From: Leuconostoc carnosum
GTDB lineage: Bacteria > Bacillota > Bacilli > Lactobacillales > Lactobacillaceae
Direction: 5' to 3'
Assembly (NCBI RefSeq): GCF_014207505.1
Contig: NZ_JACHGL010000002.1
Coordinates: forward strand, 60,971-124,970
Length of the DNA: 64,000 nt
Shown here: positions 4,797 through 51,618 of the stretch, one piece after another
How the letters are laid out: every line of letters starts with the position of its first letter
Position numbering within the stretch: the stretch's first letter is position 1
Position numbers and translations under genes: made by a program
The notes under the pieces: model-generated
Databases searched by the model: none
What the model was told of the DNA's origin: nothing
What the model saw: the letters and a program-made list of their open reading frames with translations, nothing else

Positions 4797-5055
4797 ATAT
4801 TAAAAAACGTTGAGTAGAAGAGTAGGTTAATGTATCCTTCAGAGAGTTTGTGGTTAGTGCGAGCAAACGGTTATATTAAACGAAACACATCTGCGAGTGT
4901 GTGATTGAATTGAGTAGGTCATATCGGGAATGCCCGTTACCGCATACAGTCTTTTGACTGACTGAGATGTAACTAGTGATAGTTATATAATCAAGAGGTG
5001 GCACCGCGGAAAAACGCCCTCTAAATACGACTGTATTTAGAGGGCGTTTTCTTAT
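4797..5055 (+). promoter_or_regulatory. T-box riboswitch (tRNA-sensing leader), complete copy
   Basis: Stem I landmarks are visible: the K-turn/S-turn purine tracts (GAGTAGAAGAG), AGAGAG before the distal hairpin, and a specifier-loop strand around GAAACACATCTG. The T-box AGAGGTGGCACCGCGG is at 4994-5009. The terminator is a perfect 18-bp stem (5011-5028 with 5033-5050). The specifier could be CAC (His), placed by the conserved A after the codon, or AAC (Asn). The UGGN base is C, which predicts discriminator G73. That suits tRNA-Asn better than bacterial tRNA-His, so the amino acid is unresolved. Confidence 0.93.
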
Positions 5056-14354: not shown

Positions 14355-15047
14355 ATGACAAGTATTTTAGTGGTGGATGATGAATTAGCGATTGCAACGT
14401 TGTTAAAGTATAATCTAGAGCAAAATGGATTTGACGTCACTTTAGCCGAAACAGGTGATCAAGCCTACGAACTTGCTTCTAAACAGGCATTTGATGCTAT
14501 TCTATTAGATTTGATGCTACCAGTGATGGATGGCATGACAGTATTAAAAAATTTACGGCAAGATAAAATTAGCACACCAGTAATTCTGATTACAGCTAAG
14601 GGTGATGAATTTGATCGTATTTTTGGTTTAGAATTAGGTGCAGATGATTATATTACCAAACCTTTTAGTCCACGTGAAGTTATTGCCCGACTAAAAGCCG
14701 TGTTACGCCGTTCGCAGCAAACAAAACAGCAGAATGCGACACAGCTTGATGTGATTGAGATTCAAAATTTAACGATTGATGATAGTAAAAAAGTAGTGAC
14801 TAAAGATGGTGTGATCTTAACTTTGACACCTCGAGAATATGAGTTATTATTGTATTTTGCCCAACGGCTAGGACGTGTGATTGATCGTGAGACAATTTTG
14901 ACAGCAGTATGGGGTTATGAATTCACTGGTGAAAGCCGCATGGTTGACATGCATATCAGTAATTTACGGGAAAAGATTGAGCGTAATCCAAAGACACCAA
15001 AGTTACTCAAAACTGTACGTGGCTTTGGCTATACGATGGTTGTGTAG
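14355..15047 (+). CDS. phoP: Phosphate response regulator PhoP (OmpR family)
   Basis: Transcription factor of the phosphate-starvation two-component system. 230 aa from the ATG at 14355. A longer in-frame start would read through the recA terminator and has no receiver homology. Receiver domain: Asp8 and Asp9, phospho-acceptor Asp52 (LLDLMLPVMDG), Lys in the TKPF motif near 103. Winged-helix effector from about 125 with LTPREYELL and RGFGY. Its cognate kinase gene is displaced 1.1 kb downstream by pstS1. Confidence 0.93.
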   Translation: MTSILVVDDELAIATLLKYNLEQNGFDVTLAETGDQAYELASKQAFDAILLDLMLPVMDGMTVLKNLRQDKISTPVILITAKGDEFDRIFGLELGADDYITKPFSPREVIARLKAVLRRSQQTKQQNATQLDVIEIQNLTIDDSKKVVTKDGVILTLTPREYELLLYFAQRLGRVIDRETILTAVWGYEFTGESRMVDMHISNLREKIERNPKTPKLLKTVRGFGYTMVV

Positions 15048-15062
15048 ATTTGTAAAGACACA

Positions 15063-15132
15063 TTTACATCTATTTACACAATAGTGACCGTTTTATGAAG
15101 CTTTCTCTTACATAGCGTGTGTAGTATATAAA
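15063..15132 (+). promoter_or_regulatory. PhoP-box-like repeats and promoter of pstS1
   Basis: TTTACA occurs at 15063-15068 and 15073-15078, with a related CTTACA at 15107-15112, upstream of a TATAAA -10 box (15127-15132). Known PhoP boxes are TTTACA/TTAACA direct repeats about one helical turn apart. Confidence 0.6.
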
Positions 15133-15133
15133 T

Positions 15134-15183
15134 TGTAAACAAGGAACGGTTACCAAGAACTGCTACTACAAACCTTGTTTACA
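15134..15183 (+). repeat. Perfect 11-bp inverted repeat in the pstS1 leader
   Basis: TGTAAACAAGG (15134-15144) and CCTTGTTTACA (15173-15183) flank a 28-nt loop. The arms contain TTTACA/TGTAAA, so this could be an additional PhoP site or an mRNA stem. It ends about 25 nt before the ribosome binding site. Confidence 0.6.
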
Positions 15184-15222
15184 TCATATAGACTTCTGCG
15201 ATATAAAAAGGGAGAATGCGTT

Positions 15223-16137
15223 ATGAACAAAAAAGTTGTTGGCATTATTGGCGGTCTTGTTGTGATTGCGGCAGGAATGATATTGTATACTAGTTCTGGT
15301 GCAAACCAAAATGCTAAAAAAGCAGGTGATTCAACGTCTAGTGGTGCGAGTGTCGGTGGGAAAGTGTTGGCACTAGGATCTACTGCGTTACAACCATTGG
15401 CTGAGCAAGTTAGTAAATCTTTTCAAGATAAGAATCCAGGAGTCACAATTACCGTACAGGGTGGTGGATCAGGTGCTGGATTAAGTCAAGTATCTGATGG
15501 TTCAGCTCAAATTGGTAATTCTGATGTTTTTGCTGAAGAAAAAGAAGGTGTAGATGCTTCTAAATTGATGGATCATAAGGTTGCGGTTGTTGGTATTGCA
15601 CCTGTTGTTAATTCTGATGTACAAGTATCAAACCTGACGAAAGCTCAACTACGTGATATATTTACGGGTAAAATTACGAACTGGCAAAAAGTCGGCGGTA
15701 AAGATCAAAAAATTGTGGTAGTTAATCGTGCTACTGGTTCAGGAACGCGTGCAGTCTTTGAGAAGAATATTCTAGACAATCAAAAAGCCGTCCAGGCTAC
15801 CGAACAAGATTCAAATGGCACGGTTCAAAAAATTATTGCTACAACACCGGGATCAATCTCATATCTGGCTTTTGCTTATCTTGATACCTCAGGTATCAAG
15901 GCGTTGAATATTGATAAGGTACTACCAGAAAAGAAAAATGTTGAAGATAACACTTGGCCAATATGGGCCTATGAACATATGTATACTAAAGGAGAACCCA
16001 AAGGTGCAACCAAAGAATTCTTGAATTATTTTATGACAAAAGAAGTTCAAAAATCAATTGTGCCCAAGTTAGGTTATATCGGTTTAACTGATATGCAAGT
16101 GACACGTGATGCTAAGGGCAATGTGAGTGAAAAGTAA
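15223..16137 (+). CDS. pstS1: Phosphate-binding protein PstS, copy 1
   Basis: Extracellular phosphate receptor for the PstCAB importer. 304 aa from the ATG at 15223, chosen for AAAAGGGAG 9 nt upstream. One N-terminal hydrophobic helix (about 5-24), no cysteine and so no lipobox. Phosphate-contact motifs: GSTALQPL near 50, GGGSGAGL near 78, NRATGSGTR near 170. Paralogous over its length to the second PstS (17660). It lies between phoP and phoR and has its own terminator, so it can be made in excess of the membrane complex. Confidence 0.93.
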   Translation: MNKKVVGIIGGLVVIAAGMILYTSSGANQNAKKAGDSTSSGASVGGKVLALGSTALQPLAEQVSKSFQDKNPGVTITVQGGGSGAGLSQVSDGSAQIGNSDVFAEEKEGVDASKLMDHKVAVVGIAPVVNSDVQVSNLTKAQLRDIFTGKITNWQKVGGKDQKIVVVNRATGSGTRAVFEKNILDNQKAVQATEQDSNGTVQKIIATTPGSISYLAFAYLDTSGIKALNIDKVLPEKKNVEDNTWPIWAYEHMYTKGEPKGATKEFLNYFMTKEVQKSIVPKLGYIGLTDMQVTRDAKGNVSEK

Positions 16138-16151
16138 CCTTAATTAGGACT

Positions 16152-16178
16152 AAAGCCGTCGATTTAGACGGCTTTTTT
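16152..16178 (+). terminator. Terminator after pstS1
   Basis: AAAGCCGTC - GATTTA - GACGGCTTT followed by T. It separates pstS1 from phoR. Confidence 0.88.
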
Positions 16179-16206
16179 GTTATGATAGATGTATTGGAGT
16201 AATGTT

Positions 16207-17562
16207 ATGAAAACAGTGATACTTAAATTTATATCGTTTTTAGTAATAAATATTGTTTGTTTAGTATTAGTTAATCATGTCATGTTATTTAGTGGTCAAC
16301 AGTTACTTGCACTTTTTTTTATGATATTGATTAGCACTACGGGTGTTGTTTGGGTAGCTGATTTATGGGTGTATTATCAAAAAAAAGAATTAAGAGTGAT
16401 GCAACAGCGAATGGCTTTAACGATTAAAGGGGATTCACCACGTATCGTATTGACCGAACCCAATCTACCCTACTATGATGTTATTCGACAGTTCAATGCA
16501 CTGCAAAGTTATATTCGCGACGAACAACTCTCAGCTAGACGTGATATTAATAATTATCAATCATTACTAGCGAGTCTACCGGTTGGTGTGATTAATGTTA
16601 ACCGTCAACACGTTGTTGATGTATTTAATCAAACGGCAGCAGACTTATTAGGTGTTGAATTACGCCAAACGCCAGTTACAGAAAGTTTAGTCATACAGCA
16701 ATTTACTTTGTCAGAATTAATTAATCAGACATTCAATGCACAAAAGAATCAACGGTCTGTTTTAAATTTACAAATTAATGGTGAAACTAAACAATTTGAA
16801 GCAAGTACACTTTATCACAAAAATGATTCACAATATGCCGAGGTGATGGTGATTTTATATGATCTTACCTCAGTTTTACAAATCGAGCGTATGCAATCAG
16901 ACTTTTTGGCAAATGCTTCTCATGAATTGAAAACACCATTGACAGCTATTACTGGGTTTGTAGAGACCTTGCAGGGTAAGGCAGGTGAGGATCCGACGGT
17001 ACGTGCACAGTTTTTAAAAATTGTGGCCGATGAAACCAGCCGGTTAGCATTGTTAGTTAATGATATTTTATCCATATCACGATCATACCAGAATAGCGAT
17101 GATAAGCAGGTATCATTAGCTGTTCATACTATTGTCACAGACCAATGGCAACATATGAAAACTATAGCTGCCTCTAAGAACGTGACCTTTATAAATAATG
17201 TACCACAGGACTTTACGATTTATGGTTTCAAACATGATTTGCAAACGATTTTGCAGAACTTGATCGGGAATGCCATTAAATATAATGTGTTAAATGGTAG
17301 TGTTACGGTTTCAGCGTACCAACATGATAGTTATTGGCAATTGGAAGTTAAGGATACAGGTATTGGCATTCCAAAGCAGCAACAGTCGCGTATTTTTGAA
17401 CGCTTTTATCGTGGTGATGAATCACGACAAAGGCATATCGCTAGTGGTACTGGGTTAGGTTTAGCAATTGTCAATGAACTTGTTTCGAAACACCACGGTG
17501 AAATCAATGTTAACTCTCAAGTAGCTGTGGGGACAACGATAGTTATCAAATTACCGCTATAA
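16207..17562 (+). CDS. phoR: Phosphate sensor histidine kinase PhoR
   Basis: Membrane kinase partner of PhoP. 451 aa from the ATG at 16207, which has TTGGAG at 7-nt spacing and is preferred over an in-frame ATG 18 nt upstream. Two N-terminal helices with only a few residues between them, so it has almost no external sensor. A PAS-like domain follows (about 90-215). HisKA box ASHELKTPLTAI places the phospho-histidine near residue 239. ATPase boxes: NLIGNAIKYN, DTGIGIP and GTGLGLAIV. A short external loop fits sensing through the Pst/PhoU complex. Confidence 0.94.
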   Translation: MKTVILKFISFLVINIVCLVLVNHVMLFSGQQLLALFFMILISTTGVVWVADLWVYYQKKELRVMQQRMALTIKGDSPRIVLTEPNLPYYDVIRQFNALQSYIRDEQLSARRDINNYQSLLASLPVGVINVNRQHVVDVFNQTAADLLGVELRQTPVTESLVIQQFTLSELINQTFNAQKNQRSVLNLQINGETKQFEASTLYHKNDSQYAEVMVILYDLTSVLQIERMQSDFLANASHELKTPLTAITGFVETLQGKAGEDPTVRAQFLKIVADETSRLALLVNDILSISRSYQNSDDKQVSLAVHTIVTDQWQHMKTIAASKNVTFINNVPQDFTIYGFKHDLQTILQNLIGNAIKYNVLNGSVTVSAYQHDSYWQLEVKDTGIGIPKQQQSRIFERFYRGDESRQRHIASGTGLGLAIVNELVSKHHGEINVNSQVAVGTTIVIKLPL

Positions 17563-17570
17563 AAATAGTC

Positions 17571-17624
17571 TTTACACAACCTTTACAAAACCATGCTTTT
17601 ACATTTACATAACTTTAAGATAAT
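17571..17624 (+). promoter_or_regulatory. PhoP box and promoter of the pstS2-pstCAB-phoU operon
   Basis: TTTACA at 17571, 17582 and 17604 keeps an 11-bp phase, with a further TTTACA at 17598. A -10-like GATAAT is at 17619-17624. Stronger and better phased than the pstS1 region. Confidence 0.75.
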
Positions 17625-17659
17625 AAAAGGGTAGTAGTTTAATCTTGGGAGGCATCATA

Positions 17660-18541
17660 ATGTCGAAATCGCATCGCGCAACAATTGTAGCTACAGTTGT
17701 TGCGGTGGGTATTGTTGCGGCGCTTGGAACCGCTTATGCAACACGTGATCAGGGGTCAAGTGGTACATCAATTACTGCTGTTGGCTCTACAGCACTTCAA
17801 CCATTTGTTGAAGCAGCTGGTGAGGAATACGCTAAAACTAATGTCGGCACATTTGTTAATGTGCAAGGTGGCGGTACCGGTACAGGATTGAGCCAAGTAT
17901 CGCAAGGCGCTGTTGATCTTGGTAATTCTGATGTTTTCGCGGAGGAAAAAGAAGGTATTGATGCTAAGTCTTTAGTTGATCATCGCGTAGCTGTTGTAGG
18001 AATTACACCATTGCTAAACAAAGATAATGGTGTCAAAAATTTGACCACAGCACAGTTAAAATCAATTTTTACTGGGAAAGTAACTAATTGGAATCAAGTT
18101 GGCGGGAGAAATCAAAATATTGTGATTATCAATCGTGCAACTGGTTCTGGTACAAGGGCTACTTTTGAAAAATGGGGACTACAAGGTGCTAAGAGTACTG
18201 AAGCACAAGAACAAGATTCATCAGGAATGGTACGTTCAATTGTGTCCACGACACCAGGAGCTATCTCATATGCTGCTTTTGGTTATATCGACAAAAGCGT
18301 ACTAGTACCTTCTGTGAATGGTGTTGAACCAAATAACAAAAATGTTGCTAATGGTCAATATGGTATTTGGTCATATGAGCATATTTACACAAAGGGTCAA
18401 CCTACTCGACACGTTGCAAAATTTTTAGCATATCTAACCTCTGATAATATTCAACGTACATTAGTTCCAAAGTTGGGCTATATTTCCATTCATGATATGA
18501 ATGTCGAACGTAGTGCCACTGGTGAGCTTGTCAAAAAATAA
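17660..18541 (+). CDS. pstS2: Phosphate-binding protein PstS, copy 2
   Basis: Second phosphate receptor, 293 aa from the ATG at 17660 (GGGAGG 7 nt upstream). N-terminal hydrophobic segment ending in ALGTAYA, with no cysteine, so either signal-peptidase cleaved or anchored by the helix, and not a lipoprotein. Same motifs as copy 1: GSTALQPF, GGGTGTGLSQV, NRATGSGTR. First gene of the transporter operon. A structured intergenic segment separates it from pstC. Confidence 0.93.
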   Translation: MSKSHRATIVATVVAVGIVAALGTAYATRDQGSSGTSITAVGSTALQPFVEAAGEEYAKTNVGTFVNVQGGGTGTGLSQVSQGAVDLGNSDVFAEEKEGIDAKSLVDHRVAVVGITPLLNKDNGVKNLTTAQLKSIFTGKVTNWNQVGGRNQNIVIINRATGSGTRATFEKWGLQGAKSTEAQEQDSSGMVRSIVSTTPGAISYAAFGYIDKSVLVPSVNGVEPNNKNVANGQYGIWSYEHIYTKGQPTRHVAKFLAYLTSDNIQRTLVPKLGYISIHDMNVERSATGELVKK

Positions 18542-18615
18542 GTCATTGCATACTTAATAAACTTATCTATGGCTATGCCATATTTTATAGAATATAAAAT
18601 AGAGTTTAATGACTT
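18540..18615 (+). repeat. Branched hairpin element between pstS2 and pstC
   Basis: An outer stem AAGTCATT (18540-18547) with AATGACTT (18608-18615) is reinforced by TAAACT/AGTTTA. It encloses two perfect hairpins: ATGGC-TAT-GCCAT (18569-18581) and ATTTTATA-GAA-TATAAAAT (18582-18600). There is no T run, so it is not a classic terminator. Probable mRNA-processing or stabilising structure that sets the ratio of binding protein to permease. Confidence 0.65.
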
Positions 18616-18633
18616 AAACATTTTGGAGAAAAA

Positions 18634-19557
18634 ATGGATAATATTACAAAAAAGTTGATGCAAAAATCTGAATCAACAAAAAAAGATTCGATGGGACGAG
18701 CTATTAGTTTAGCTGCTTTAGCCTTGATTGTCATTGTTGTTGTCTCAATTTTTGCTTTTGTTATGAGCAGAGGTTTATCAACCTTTGTTCGTGATGGTGT
18801 GAGTGTTAAAGATTTTTTATTTGGCACAACATGGAATCCGTCCGTTGTTAATCCACAAACAAAACAACCATACATTGGTGCACTGCCAATGATATTAGGG
18901 TCATTTTTGGTTACTTTTTTAGCTGCCATTGTTGCAACACCATTTGCTATTGGTACGTCATTGTTTATGACTGAAATTGCCCAAAAAAAAGGTGCCAAAT
19001 TGATGCAACCAGTGATTGAATTATTAGTTGGTATTCCGTCAGTTGTTTATGGATTCATTGGCTTGACAGTTGTTGTACCGTTCATTCGTCATTTATTTGG
19101 TGGTTCTGGATTTGGTATTTTATCAGGTACGATTGTTTTGTTTGTTATGATTTTACCAACAATTACTTCGATGACTGTTGATACATTGAAGTCTGTGCCG
19201 CGCCATTATCGAGAATCTGCGCTAGCTATTGGCGCAACTCGTTGGCAAATGATTTACAAAGTAGTGCTGAGAGCAGCAACACCAGGTATACTGACAGCTA
19301 TTGTGTTTGGCATGGCACGTGCCTTTGGTGAAGCACTAGCTGTACAGATGGTTATCGGTAATGCAGCTTTGATGCCAAATGATTTGATTTCACCGGCATC
19401 AACATTAACATCAGTATTAACTATGGGTATTGGTAATACTGTCATGGGCTCTTTGCAAAATGACGTTTTGTGGACATTGGCTATGATCTTATTGTTGATG
19501 TCATTAATCTTTAATTTGATTGTACGTGCCATTGGTCGTAAAGGAGAAATGAAATAA
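18634..19557 (+). CDS. pstC: Phosphate ABC transporter permease PstC
   Basis: One of two channel subunits of the high-affinity phosphate importer. 307 aa with six membrane helices. The permease loop near residues 190-215 (RHYRESALAIGATRWQM) contacts the ATPase. TTTTGGAGA ribosome binding site. Overlaps pstA by one base. Confidence 0.95.
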   Translation: MDNITKKLMQKSESTKKDSMGRAISLAALALIVIVVVSIFAFVMSRGLSTFVRDGVSVKDFLFGTTWNPSVVNPQTKQPYIGALPMILGSFLVTFLAAIVATPFAIGTSLFMTEIAQKKGAKLMQPVIELLVGIPSVVYGFIGLTVVVPFIRHLFGGSGFGILSGTIVLFVMILPTITSMTVDTLKSVPRHYRESALAIGATRWQMIYKVVLRAATPGILTAIVFGMARAFGEALAVQMVIGNAALMPNDLISPASTLTSVLTMGIGNTVMGSLQNDVLWTLAMILLLMSLIFNLIVRAIGRKGEMK

Positions 19558-20441
19558 TGAATGCAAAAACTGCTGATAAACTAGCAACTGGTGTGATTTA
19601 TGCTATTTCTGGTACAGTCGCTTTGATCTTAATTGCCATGTTGTCTTTCATTTTAGTACGTGGATTACCTCATCTATCGTGGCATTTTTTAACCACGCCT
19701 GCTAAAGCCTTCGAAGCAGGTGGTGGTATTGGTATACAGTTATTTAATTCGTTTTATTTACTTATTTTAGCTATGTTGATTAGTTTTCCAATTGCTTTGG
19801 GTGCCGCAATTTACTTGAACGAGTACGCTAAAAAAGGACCGATTACAACAATTGTGCGTACAGCAATTGAAATTTTGAGTTCTTTACCATCAGTTGTTGT
19901 GGGGTTGTTTGGTTTTCTGTTGTTTGTTGTTAAGCTACATTTAGGTTTTTCAATTTTATCTGGTGCCATTGCATTGACTTTATTTAACTTACCGCTACTC
20001 ACACGATCAATTGAGACAAGTTTAGCGCAAATCCCTAATTTACAACGTGAAGCTGGATCTGCACTTGGTTTATCAAGATGGGAAACGGTTATTCATGTTA
20101 TTTTACCAGCAGCAGTGCCTTCAATTATAACAGGAGTTGTTTTATCTGCTGGTCGCGTATTTGGAGAAGCCGCTGCCTTAATTTATACAGCTGGTCAATC
20201 AGCACCAGCACTTAATTTTTCAGACTGGAATCCATTCAATATATCTAGTCCGCTAAGCCCAATGCGTCCAGCTGAAACTTTAGCTGTTCATATTTGGAAA
20301 ATTAATTCTGAAGGAATTATGCCAGATGTATCTGCTGTATCTGCTGGCGCTTCAGCTGTTTTGATTATAGTTGTACTTTTGTTTAATTTCAGTGCGCGTA
20401 AACTTGGCGCAAAACTGCATAAGAAATTAACAAGTGCTTAA
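19557..20441 (+). CDS. pstA: Phosphate ABC transporter permease PstA
   Basis: Second channel subunit, 294 aa, six helices. Cytoplasmic loop LQREAGSALGLSRWETV near 162-178. Translationally coupled to pstC (ATAATG overlap with the AAGGAG in its end). Confidence 0.95.
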   Translation: MNAKTADKLATGVIYAISGTVALILIAMLSFILVRGLPHLSWHFLTTPAKAFEAGGGIGIQLFNSFYLLILAMLISFPIALGAAIYLNEYAKKGPITTIVRTAIEILSSLPSVVVGLFGFLLFVVKLHLGFSILSGAIALTLFNLPLLTRSIETSLAQIPNLQREAGSALGLSRWETVIHVILPAAVPSIITGVVLSAGRVFGEAAALIYTAGQSAPALNFSDWNPFNISSPLSPMRPAETLAVHIWKINSEGIMPDVSAVSAGASAVLIIVVLLFNFSARKLGAKLHKKLTSA

Positions 20442-20461
20442 TTTTTAGAAATCTGAATTGA

Positions 20462-20490
20462 TTGAATATGAAATAGTAAATACTTAACAT
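20462..20490 (+). promoter_or_regulatory. Internal promoter directly at the start of pstB1
   Basis: TTGAAT (20462-20467), exactly 17 bp, TAACAT (20485-20490). The predicted transcription start coincides with the ATG at 20498, so this transcript would have no leader. Confidence 0.55.
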
Positions 20491-20497
20491 TTGCTAA

Positions 20498-21355
20498 ATG
20501 AGTGATGAAGAAAGTGTGGCAAGCCTTATGGAGTTAAAACCAGTTAGTGAGTTTATCACTGATGACGCCCCAGAGCGTTATATCTATGATATGCAATCAA
20601 AAAAGCATGAAATTGCTTTATCAACAAAAGATTTACAAGTTTATTATGGCGACAATTTAGCCCTCAGTGAAGGGGATTTATCATTTGAACGGTATAAGAT
20701 CACAAGCTTGATTGGTGCCTCTGGTTCAGGAAAATCAACTTTCTTGCGGTCGTTAAACCGTATGAATGATGGTGTGGCAACAGTCAAAGGGAATATTATG
20801 TATCGTGGGGTGGATATTAACACCAAGGCAATTGATGTTTATGAGATGCGCCGTCACATTGGGATGGTATTCCAGCGACCTAATCCATTTGCCAAGTCAA
20901 TTTATAATAATATTACGTTTGCGTTGACACAACGAGATCACTATACAAAAGAAGCACTTGATGAAATTGTTGAAACGAGTTTAAAACAAGCTGCTTTATG
21001 GGATCAAGTAAAAGATGATTTGAATAAATCAGCCCTTGCATTGTCAGGTGGGCAAGCGCAACGCTTAGTAATTGCCCGTGCATTGGCGTTAAAACCAGAC
21101 ATCTTGTTATTGGACGAACCATCGAGTGCGCTTGATCCAATATCATCAGCTCAGGTAGAAGATACGTTGCTTGAATTAAAAAAGCAATATACTATCATTG
21201 TAGTGACGCACAATATGCAACAGGCTGCACGAATTAGTGACTATACGGCATTCTTCCATATGGGTAAAGTGATTGAGTATGATTTAACGCGTAAAATTTT
21301 CACACGACCTAAAGTTGCACTTACTAATGATTATATTTCGGGGAATTTCGGATGA
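20498..21355 (+). CDS. pstB1: Phosphate ABC transporter ATPase PstB, copy 1
   Basis: ATP-hydrolysing subunit. 285 aa, with an acidic N-terminal extension of about 45 residues relative to PstB2. Walker [10 protein letters not shown] near residue 74, LSGGQAQR signature, Walker [13 protein letters not shown]. No Shine-Dalgarno sequence precedes this ATG. A second in-frame ATG at 20528 also lacks one. Overlaps pstB2 by 4 nt. Confidence 0.92.
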
Positions 21356-22122
21356 CAGATAATAATCACAAAAATATACTAGAAACGCGTGATGTCAAGT
21401 TGTGGTATGGTCACGCAGAAGCGCTACATGGGATTAATTTAGATTTTCCAGAAAAAGGAATTACCGCACTTATTGGTCCCTCAGGCTCTGGTAAGTCAAC
21501 TTACCTGCGTGCGTTAAACCGTATGCATGATTTGGAAGACAATGTCACAGTGACGGGTTCATTTAATTTTAATGGGCAAGATATCTATGCACCAACGACA
21601 GATACGGTAGATTTACGTAAACGTATTGGCATGGTATTTCAACAGCCCAATCCTTTTCCGTTTTCAATTTATGAAAATGTTATTTTCGGATTGAAATTAG
21701 CCGGTGTGAAAGAGAAGGCTGTGCTTGACGAGGCGGTTGAACGCTCATTAAAACAGGCATCAGTTTGGGATGAAGTAAAAGATGATTTACATAAATCAGC
21801 ATTAGGATTGTCAGGTGGGCAGCAACAGCGTGTTTCACTTGCCCGTGTTTTGGCCACAGCGCCAGAACTATTATTACTAGATGAGCCAACATCTGCCCTT
21901 GATCCAGTTTCTAGTCACAATATCGAAGAAACATTGTTGAATTTACGTGACGATTATGCGATGATAATTGTGACACACTCTATGTCCCAAGCCTCACGTA
22001 TTTCAGATCGAACAGCCTTCTTTTTGAGTGGTGATTTGGTTGAGGTTGATGCGACAAAGCATATTTTTTTAAATCCAACAAAGCAGGAAACACAAGATTA
22101 TGTGAGTGGTCGATTCGGTTAA
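21352..22122 (+). CDS. pstB2: Phosphate ABC transporter ATPase PstB, copy 2
   Basis: Tandem paralogue of the preceding ATPase, 256 aa. Walker [10 protein letters not shown], signature LSGGQQQR, Walker [13 protein letters not shown] and H-loop VTHSMSQ. Two PstB genes in tandem are known from streptococci and lactobacilli; they may form a heterodimer or alternate. Confidence 0.94.
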
Positions 22123-22176
22123 TTATGAAGAATACTAACAGATGATGCATACGTTAACAGAAAAAGGAGCAAGAAC

Positions 22177-22851
22177 ATGCGACGATTATTTGATGAAGAA
22201 TTAGCAGATTTAGATAATTCATTTACAGAAATGGGCATGCTCGTTGCCCAGACGATTCAAAGGTCTGTGCAGTCATTTGTGGATCATGATCGCGAAGGTG
22301 CCAGAGACATCTTAGAAAATGATCACCAAATCAATGAACGTGAAGCAGCAATTGAAAAGAAAACATTTGAAATGATAGCACTCTATCAACCAGTGACAAC
22401 AGATTTACGAGAAATTGTCACCATCTTAAAAGCTGTATCTGTTTTAGAACGTATGGGAGATCAAGCACGTAACATTGCCAACTCAACTATACGAGTAAAA
22501 GGTACGAAACATATTTCTGGGGTTGAACAAGAGCTTGGTAAAATGGGCGAACAAGTTGCGAAAATGGTTGCTGAAGTCATGGATTATTATATTAAAAATG
22601 ATGCTCATGGTGCTCAGACTATTGCTGATGAAAACCAATCGTTATCAAAGCGGGCAGCTAAAGTACGTTCTGATGCTTTGGAGGGAATGAAAGAGGATGC
22701 AGAATTAGTTGATTCAGCTGCAGACTATTTAGTTATTGCTGGATATCTTAAGCGTATTGGTGATTACACAACTGACATTGCAGAATGGATTGTTTATAAA
22801 CGTACAGGTAAAATTATTGAATTAAACCCTGGTTATAATTATTTTATTTAA
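22177..22851 (+). CDS. phoU: Phosphate transport regulator PhoU
   Basis: Helical negative regulator linking Pst transport state to PhoR. 224 aa with two PhoU repeats, each with an acidic helix motif: ERMGDQARNIAN near 90 and KRIGDYTTDIAEW near 192. AAAAGGAGC ribosome binding site. Last gene of the pst operon. Confidence 0.95.
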   Translation: MRRLFDEELADLDNSFTEMGMLVAQTIQRSVQSFVDHDREGARDILENDHQINEREAAIEKKTFEMIALYQPVTTDLREIVTILKAVSVLERMGDQARNIANSTIRVKGTKHISGVEQELGKMGEQVAKMVAEVMDYYIKNDAHGAQTIADENQSLSKRAAKVRSDALEGMKEDAELVDSAADYLVIAGYLKRIGDYTTDIAEWIVYKRTGKIIELNPGYNYFI

Positions 22852-32727: not shown

Positions 32728-32752
32728 AAAAATATCCCTCGGGATATTTTTT
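32728..32752 (+). terminator. rplS terminator
   Basis: AAAATATCCC - TC - GGGATATTTT with a T run. Confidence 0.9.
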
Positions 32753-32856
32753 GTTTGACCAATTAAATGATGATTTTTATATAGTTATTTATGTTTTGTC
32801 ATTTTCATGTAATCAAATCGCAAGATTTATGATATATAAATTGTAACGTAAGGGTA

Positions 32857-32862
32857 TATAAT
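32857..32862 (+). promoter_or_regulatory. -10 box of the putative small RNA
   Basis: TATAAT in an AT-rich context; no convincing -35 at 17 bp, so an activator may be required. Predicted start near 32869. Confidence 0.55.
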
Positions 32863-32868
32863 TAATAC

Positions 32869-33005
32869 ATACTCAAATAACATTTGAGTTTCATTACTCC
32901 CCCCAGTAATGCTTCAATCAGCTCCCCCAATTACTGATTGATTCAATTGATAGTTTCGGCTATCATCCCCCTGACCATTGCCCTCTTCGGTCAGGGGTTT
33001 TTTTT
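32869..33005 (+). ncRNA. Candidate small RNA with C-rich anti-Shine-Dalgarno loops
   Basis: About 137 nt with no credible coding frame, between rplS and dinB. Hairpins: ACTCAAAT-AAC-ATTTGAGT (32871-32889); CATTACT-CCCCCC-AGTAATG (32892-32911); TCAATCAG-CTCCCCCAATTA-CTGATTGA (32914-32941); TGATAG-TTTCGG-CTATCA (32948-32965). The terminator is CCCCTGACC with GGTCAGGGG (32968-32997) plus eight T. Six Cs fill the second loop, CTCCCCC lies in the third, and TCCCCC follows the fourth hairpin. Unpaired C-rich segments of this kind target GGAG-type ribosome binding sites in known Firmicute small RNAs (RsaE, LhrC, csRNAs). It has its own -10 box and terminator, and dinB has a separate promoter, so it is not a dinB leader. 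Confidence 0.75.
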
Positions 33006-38765: not shown

Positions 38766-38848
38766 AGTTTCAATTGTTCTTCATAGCATATTTTACTATT
38801 TACTATGTTGATTATACATTAAAATCAAAGACTCGGGGGAGACAGAGC

Positions 38849-51596: not shown

Positions 51597-51618
51597 TGCT
51601 TCGGGGGGAGTGAATATT

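What the first reader, a model, noticed from the sequence alone, without database searches (positions are those of the whole stretch)
32857..33005. Candidate trans-acting small RNA with three C-rich loops
Between rplS and dinB lies a free-standing unit: -10 box, four short perfect hairpins and a strong terminator, with no coding frame. Three unpaired segments (six C in loop 2, CTCCCCC in loop 3, TCCCCC after hairpin 4) could each pair with GGGGAG-type ribosome binding sites. Known Firmicute regulators such as RsaE, LhrC and the CiaR csRNAs work this way. Several strong sites in this window (for example dltX GGGGGAGA and ydbS GGGGGGAG) are natural targets, which hints at envelope-stress control.
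Basis: partly seen in the sequence, partly recalled or inferred. Interest (0 to 1): 0.8.

Follow-up and report, generated by a model that had tools for sequence, protein, structure and literature searches.

The report
LhrC-like small RNA of lactic bacteria
Next to the rplS gene of a Leuconostoc lies a structure-conserved, predicted small RNA gene whose relatives are spread over the lactic acid bacteria and whose covariance models also pick out RNAs of the LhrC type known from Listeria; its C-rich loops would pair with ribosome binding sites and likely shut down cell-envelope genes.

Summary
The unit is real: four hairpins plus terminator (z -7.4), no coding frame, no Rfam family. It occurs in 19 of 19 Leuconostoc genomes and one neighbouring genus. 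A model of Weissella-group relatives scores every Leuconostoc locus and reaches further Lactobacillaceae genera. Stems are rewritten by compensatory changes while C-rich loops mostly stay.

A Lactobacillaceae-only model lands on LhrC: 14 of 14 hits in five fetched stretches; the Leuconostoc-group model finds 6 of these.

The promoter has no -35 and four half-sites 11 bp apart, resembling WalR boxes.

Of 19 downstream genes only dltX (11 of 12 genomes) and ydbS (6 of 10) recurrently carry GGGG in the ribosome binding site. ydbS leaders differ between species in step with the loops, with exceptions.

Against: 7 of 15 ydbS leaders lack a G tract; the wider GGGGAG set is not conserved; the WalR-like pattern is not enriched.

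One detail is wrong: the C run after hairpin 4 is mostly terminator stem; the third open site is the terminator loop CCCUCUU. Transcription and regulation are untested.

The parts
32797..32835 (+). Four tandem half-sites at 11-bp steps (TGTCAT 32797, TGTAAT 32808, CGCAAG 32819, TGATAT 32830), predicted response-regulator array
   Evidence: G invariant at -59, -48, -37, -26 from the start of the -10 in 16 of 16 sequences with equal spacing (4 of 20 with other spacing left out); the first two half-sites end 43-44 bp from the -10 in 19 of 20
32857..32862 (+). -10 hexamer TATAAT; no recognisable -35
   Evidence: Sequence
32869..33005 (+). Predicted small RNA transcript, about 137 nt (start inferred from the -10)
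32871..32889 (+). Hairpin 1
   Evidence: two-sided changes in 1 of 8 pairs and 8 of 8 pairs
32892..32911 (+). Hairpin 2, loop CCCCCC; TTCATTACT followed within three letters by CCCC in all 20 Leuconostoc-group sequences, and also in Weissella
32914..32941 (+). Hairpin 3, loop CTCCCCCAATTA; stem changes freely in relatives, CCCCCAATT invariant in the 20 Leuconostoc-group sequences
32948..32965 (+). Hairpin 4
32968..33005 (+). Intrinsic terminator; its loop ATTGCCCTCTTC holds the third accessible C-rich site
51603..51613 (+). Predicted target: ydbS ribosome binding site GGGGGGAGTGA, 11 bp with loop 2 (start codon 51619)
38835..38841 (+). Predicted target: dltX ribosome binding site GGGGGAG (start codon 38849)

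Best explanation
The stretch is a free-standing gene for a predicted trans-acting small RNA of a likely LhrC-related superfamily, which would be switched on by an OmpR-type response regulator (most likely WalR in Leuconostoc) and would bind the G-rich ribosome binding sites of envelope genes such as ydbS and dltX through its C-rich loops, likely blocking their translation. Shown here: the conserved structure with compensatory changes, the mostly fixed C-rich loops, the phased promoter half-sites, the spread over Lactobacillaceae, the model matches to LhrC, and the recurring complementarity to ydbS and dltX in part of the genus. Inferred: transcription, which regulator binds, base pairing in the cell, repression rather than activation, and common descent with LhrC rather than convergence.
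For: Structure: z -7.4. On 8 distinct Weissella-group sequences 23 of 50 pairs have two-sided changes and 94.7% of cells pair, against 35-47% when partners are slid; on 45 distinct sequences 42 of 50 and 93.0%, though that alignment was fitted to the model. Spread: 19 of 19 Leuconostoc genomes plus G025; model R2, without Leuconostoc, scores the window and 20 of 20 loci and matches 76 of 397 family genomes. Free-standing: rplS lies within the fetched flanks in 17 of 20 Leuconostoc-group loci and in none of 37 other loci. Kinship: R3 (Lactobacillaceae only) scores 25-34 bits on 14 LhrC places, and all 14 of its hits in those five stretches are LhrC, while the best non-RNA score in 416 kb of Leuconostoc DNA is 11.4 bits; R1 (Leuconostoc group) finds 6 of the 14. 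Promoter. WalR/YycF is encoded (403 bits, cut-off 340). Similar boxes lie before LysM and CpsB-like genes. Targets. Precedent: LhrC needs LisRK, and its C-rich loop A and terminator loop bind the lapB ribosome binding site (PMC4132741, passages read).
Against: No expression data. The LhrC link rests on models of a simple architecture and could be convergence; the Rfam LhrC model does not find this RNA, and only 2 of the 14 LhrC places reach Rfam's own cut-off. R2 missed 6 of 19 Leuconostoc genomes under the strict filters of the genome search. Three g18 relatives have lost the C run of loop 3, one of them also that of loop 2. Seven of 15 ydbS leaders have no G tract, and 4 of 19 genomes gave no ydbS match. 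Among GGGGAG sites of four species only three genes recur, each in two species. The dltA tract is in 1 of 12. In most species the dltX duplex is only 6-8 bp long. Leaders of G013 and G017 pair better with the RNA of G000 than with their own. The WalR-like pattern is not enriched: 145 sites against 190 for the reversed control at one mismatch in the own genome, 135 against 147 exact in 19 genomes. Many relatives have another promoter motif.
Confidence: 0.72

Rival explanations
1. Same small RNA, but its input is not WalR: a PhoP-like or LisR-like response regulator drives it.
For: A YycF-like second regulator (247 bits, below the YycF cut-off) sits in the window beside genes that read by eye as a pst phosphate operon. 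Upstream regions there carry TTTACA repeats, a half-site close to the reverse complement of TGTAAT. LhrC in Listeria depends on LisRK (PMC4132741, passages). 18 of 52 upstream regions outside the Leuconostoc group have TTCAYA repeats just before a -10-like hexamer.
Against: The Leuconostoc half-sites end in Y (TGTMAY), unlike the pst repeats (TGTAAA when reversed), and face the other way; the same pattern precedes a LysM-CAP gene.
Confidence: 0.35
2. The C-rich hairpins bind a protein (for example a KH-domain RNA-binding protein) and the RNA is a decoy, not an antisense regulator.
For: Several similar C-rich loops on short stems are also what a decoy would show; loop sequences are kept while stems vary.
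Against: The ydbS leaders with G tracts pair with the loops and with flanking stem bases, in different registers in different species; LhrC loops act by base pairing (PMC4132741, passages).
Confidence: 0.1
3. The unit is only the 3' end or read-through terminator region of rplS.
For: It lies downstream of rplS in 17 of 20 Leuconostoc-group loci.
Against: A terminator-like hairpin with a T run follows the rplS stop codon at about 32729-32752 (sequence); the RNA has its own -10 and phased upstream sites; 37 relatives of other genera and 3 of the Leuconostoc group have no rplS in the fetched flanks.
Confidence: 0.04
4. Kinship with LhrC is convergence: unrelated RNAs share hairpins with C-rich loops and a terminator.
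For: R3 scores on LhrC are modest (25-34 bits), LhrC has fewer hairpins, and R1 finds none of the f5, f2 and f9 stretches given to it.
Against: The R3 hits in the fetched f8 stretches are the LhrC places themselves, several per genome; background reaches only 11.4 bits.
Confidence: 0.3

Closest known systems
LhrC family of Listeria (Rfam RF00616)
   Same: Free-standing RNA with C-rich accessible sites including the terminator loop, predicted to bind G-rich ribosome binding sites of envelope genes and to be controlled by a response regulator (shown for LhrC in PMC4132741, predicted here); models R1 and R3 hit LhrC.
   Different: Four hairpins plus terminator here instead of a stem A plus terminator; one strong copy in the window's genome; CCCCC and CCCUCUU instead of repeated CUCCC; different promoter array; not found by the Rfam LhrC model.
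Ref84, Enterococcus sRNA 84 (Rfam RF02846)
   Same: In 3 of 7 fetched g67 stretches (family f5) the R3 hit lies where Rfam scores Ref84 at 51.1, 45.1 and 45.1 bits, under its cut-off of 52; the hairpin TTTACTCCTCCAAAGTAAA there resembles hairpin 2.
   Different: About 90 nt with two hairpins; Rfam types it as antisense RNA; Rfam's Ref84 model does not find the window's RNA.
CiaR csRNAs, RsaE and FsrA (csRNAs recalled; RsaE and FsrA named in the passages of PMC4132741)
   Same: C-rich single-stranded motifs aimed at Shine-Dalgarno sequences.
   Different: No specific test was made; similarity is of mode of action only.

Membership tests
LhrC (RF00616) | Reaches the curated score of the Rfam model | tested here: not met
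   No match at gathering nor among matches up to E 10
LhrC (RF00616) | Found by a profile linking it to LhrC | tested here: met
   R3 and R1, built from Lactobacillaceae only, hit LhrC places; 2 of the 14 places reach Rfam's LhrC cut-off, 12 score 83-107 bits against 110
LhrC (RF00616) | Three accessible UCCC sites: loop A, linker, terminator loop | tested here: inconclusive
   Loops 2 and 3 hold UCCC; the terminator loop is CCCUCUU, not UCCC; the linker C run is paired
LhrC (RF00616) | Dependence on the LisRK two-component system | not testable with these tools
   Only a phased response-regulator-like array is visible
LhrC (RF00616) | Several copies per genome | tested here: not met
   One strong copy in G000; other Lactobacillaceae can have more
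Ref84 (RF02846) | Reaches the curated score of the Rfam model | tested here: not met
WalR regulon | TGTWAH-N5-TGTWAH site (PMC9210968, passages read) | tested here: inconclusive
   The window's TGTCATTTTCATGTAAT has C for W in the first half-site; TGTAAT-N5-TGTAAT of L003-L005 and L019 fits fully
Small protein gene | Open reading frame | tested here: not met
   No frame of 25 aa or more covers the unit in the window; not tested in relatives
CiaR csRNA / RsaE | Family-specific promoter or structure | not tested
   Recalled only; no such name among the Rfam matches up to E 10

The most novel reading that the evidence does not exclude
LhrC of Listeria and Ref84 of Enterococcus are two outposts of one ancient envelope-stress small RNA that runs through the order Lactobacillales, kept by its C-rich loops while its stems, number of hairpins, genome position and controlling two-component system are replaced; in Leuconostoc it was rewired from a TTCACA-type regulator to a WalR-type array and co-evolves with the ydbS leader.
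Probability: 0.45. Interest if true: 0.8.

Novelty: new variant of a known kind. Interest (0 to 1): 0.66.

Why it matters
LhrC is filed in Rfam as a Listeria RNA. If its relatives sit in Leuconostoc, Weissella and other food bacteria, its role in envelope defence can be studied in harmless species, and its target rules can be read from differences between loops and ribosome binding sites across species. It would also give lactic acid bacteria a widespread envelope regulator that Rfam does not list.

Tried and rejected
Rfam at E up to 10 gave only unconvincing matches (TarA, ar14, NsiR1 and others). The weak R1 hits in G000 and G194 (L051) look unrelated. Six of 26 stretches of the pattern scan look like chance matches. 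A WalR regulon was not obtained: the pattern is no commoner than its reversed control; the rpoB group of 13 is probably a leader element beside the ribosome binding site. A GGGGAG regulon across four species was not conserved (60 of the 92 listed places of G003, G011 and G013 were examined, plus 20 own). dltA was dropped as a target. Alignment A4 misplaced hairpins and was not used for a model. Genera g16, g19 and g50 could not be named. One search aligned minus-strand loci unturned and was replaced. One search used wrong dltX coordinates and was replaced, for dltX; the dltX row has its start two bases off.

Full report
CHECK OF THE OBSERVATION. The stretch 32857-33005 lies between rplS and dinB. 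It folds with -42.7 kcal/mol against a shuffle mean of -20.5, z -7.4, 0 of 200 shuffles as good. The four hairpins and the terminator are as described. No reading frame of 25 aa or more covers it. Rfam gives nothing here at its cut-offs and only weak, unconvincing matches up to E 10. One detail is wrong: the C run after hairpin 4 belongs mostly to the terminator stem, and the third open C-rich site is the terminator loop CCCTCTT.

SPREAD IN LEUCONOSTOC. A search of 60 genomes found it in the own and in 18 of 18 other same-genus genomes, plus G025 of another genus; the matches in the remaining genomes were short and weak. Contig lengths tie the genus to Leuconostoc: G008:C1 (479544) and G013:C29 (25741) equal the records of L. 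miyukkimchii and L. falkenbergense. In the alignment of 20, four C of loop 2, CCCCCAATT of loop 3 and CCCTCT of the terminator loop are invariant, while hairpin 4 and the terminator stem vary.

BEYOND LEUCONOSTOC. A model of these 20 sequences (R1) matched 21 of 301 family genomes at E 0.1 or better, including four of genus g18. A pattern scan of named genomes returned 26 stretches: 11 Leuconostoc, 7 Weissella, 2 Lactobacillaceae assemblies with the RNA, and 6 that look like chance. In the Weissella-group sequences the stems other than that of hairpin 2 are almost wholly different, but TTTCATTACTCCCC, TTCCC(C/T)AA and CCCCCTCTT are kept. A model from 8 of them (R2) scores the window and all 20 Leuconostoc-group loci at 29-50 bits. 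In the genome search it matched 76 of 397 family genomes: g18 24, g16 24, g1 13, g19 4, g50 4, g8 1 and six weak cases in g12, g14, g15, g54 and g55; 6 of 19 g1 genomes were missed under its strict filters. The 19 fetched g16, g19, g50 and other hits other than L415 show a hairpin with a C-rich loop like loop 2 and, mostly, a second one like loop 3; the g16 terminator lacks CCCTCTT. Of nine further loci read, L382, L385 and L387 have lost the C run of loop 3 and L387 also that of loop 2. Of 18 loci scanned, one had an Rfam match up to E 0.1, a microRNA model far under its cut-off.

COVARIATION. On the 8 Weissella-group sequences 94.7% of cells pair, 23 of 50 pairs show two-sided changes, and slid controls pair at 35-47%. 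Hairpin 2 never varies there and says nothing. On 45 distinct sequences the figures are 93.0% and 42 of 50, with the caution that the alignment was fitted to the structure. In Leuconostoc alone 4 of 31 pairs show two-sided changes.

LOCATION. rplS lies within the fetched flanks in 17 of 20 Leuconostoc-group loci and in none of the other 37 loci compared, so the gene is not a tail of rplS.

LINK TO LhrC. Model R3, built from 51 Lactobacillaceae matches, was run on 395 genomes of the order: 91 match. I fetched 20 stretches chosen by their hits. In the five stretches from family f8 all 14 R3 hits coincide with Rfam LhrC matches of 83-112 bits; two of these reach the LhrC cut-off of 110. Two weaker LhrC matches there (44.5 and 37.9 bits) are not R3 hits. 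In family f5, three of seven g67 stretches score 45-51 bits for Ref84, cut-off 52. Apart from the RNA itself, R3 scores at most 11.4 bits in 416 kb of Leuconostoc DNA. R1 scores 22-29 bits on 6 of the 14 LhrC places and finds none of the f5, f2 and f9 stretches given to it. Names such as Listeria and Enterococcus are taken from the Rfam labels. The published LhrC work (PMC4132741, passages read) reports that LhrC needs LisRK, that loop A and the terminator loop bind the lapB ribosome binding site, and that promoter positions about -55 to -75 matter.

PROMOTER. In 16 sequences with equal spacing (L007, L008, L010 and L020 left out) a G is invariant at -59, -48, -37 and -26 from the -10, each 11 bp apart: four half-sites, of which the first two fit TGTMAY-N5-YGTAAY or nearly so. 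The WalR consensus in print is TGTWAH-N5-TGTWAH (PMC9210968, passages read). The own genome has 7 exact sites, among them this one, one upstream of a LysM-CAP protein and one upstream of a secreted protein without Pfam match. In 80 fetched places of other species plus 6 own loci, downstream genes found at least three times are rpoB 13, LysM 6, the secreted protein 6, a PTS gene 5, a CpsB-like gene 5 and dnaG 3 (names by eye except LysM); 26 of the 86 had no frame downstream. The other listed places, among them all of G012, G013 and G018, were not examined. The pattern as such is not enriched: 135 exact sites against 147 for the reversed control in 19 genomes. rpoB is probably a leader feature. 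WalR is encoded; so are a YycF-like second regulator beside pst-like genes in the window and four further OmpR-type regulators. Outside the Leuconostoc group, 18 of 52 upstream regions have TTCAYA-type repeats 8-10 bp before a -10-like hexamer, 4 have the Leuconostoc type and 30 fit neither strict pattern. I therefore hold WalR only as the likeliest of several.

TARGETS. GGGGAG-N2-10-ATG occurs 20 times in the own genome (one is the reverse strand of this RNA), control 15. Genes among them include ydbS, dltX, a signal peptidase, VIT1, DUF956 and DUF805. In four species (80 places, 54 with a frame of at least 40 aa) only three genes recur, each in two species, one of them ydbS. In the window, of 64 gene starts chosen by script, ydbS has the best predicted duplex (-23.2) and dltX the third (-17.7); the 1% level of 400 random stretches is -14.4, and six starts pass it. 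In 20 kb of shared gene order, GGGG before the start occurs for dltX in 11 of 12 genomes and for ydbS in 6 of 10, but in 0-3 of 10-12 for each of 17 other genes; mscL could not be scored. dltX ranks first or second in 9 of 12, ydbS first in 6 of 10. Swapping partners: the own ydbS leader pairs better with RNAs that have a long loop 2 (-23) than with the short-loop group (-17.8); the leaders of G002, G003, G007, G009 and G012 pair best with RNAs that have CAGCCCCCC in loop 3; the G013 and G017 leaders pair better with the RNA of G000 than with their own. Against: 7 of 15 ydbS leaders have no G tract, 4 of 19 genomes gave no ydbS match, and in four of 16 stretches no dltX was found.

LITERATURE. 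Searches for Leuconostoc small RNAs, WalR and small RNA, WalRK and noncoding RNA, Lactobacillus C-rich sRNA, Lactiplantibacillus sRNA, LhrC with Enterococcus, Ref84, and LhrC with Lactobacillus gave no listing that appears to report this RNA (titles and abstract starts only, capped lists). The library lacks most subscription papers.

Noticed in passing
window 14355-22851: A YycF/PhoP-like regulator followed by genes that read by eye as a pst phosphate-transport operon; upstream regions there carry TTTACA direct repeats.
   Followed up: partly
window 4801-5024: T-box leader, 117.5 bits, the only Rfam match in the window at the curated cut-offs.
   Followed up: no
L055, L146, L159 and ten more rpoB loci: TGTAAY-N5-TGTAAY lies about 45 nt upstream of rpoB in 13 loci, beside the ribosome binding site; perhaps part of a conserved rpoB leader.
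   Followed up: no
L057 1541-2236: Secreted-looking protein of about 220-230 aa without Pfam match, preceded by the WalR-like box in six Leuconostoc genomes.
   Followed up: partly
L344, L345 upstream of ydbS: Two G tracts stand in the ydbS leader of G003 (G6 and G6) and G009 (G6 and G5), so two loops could bind one mRNA.
   Followed up: partly
G078 (genus g55), L460 and L461: Five R3 matches in one Lactobacillaceae genome, three of them within 10 kb; a multicopy arrangement as in LhrC.
   Followed up: no
L152 / L284 (G011, CpsB-like gene): One gene with both a WalR-like box and a GGGGAG ribosome binding site: a possible feed-forward loop.
   Followed up: no
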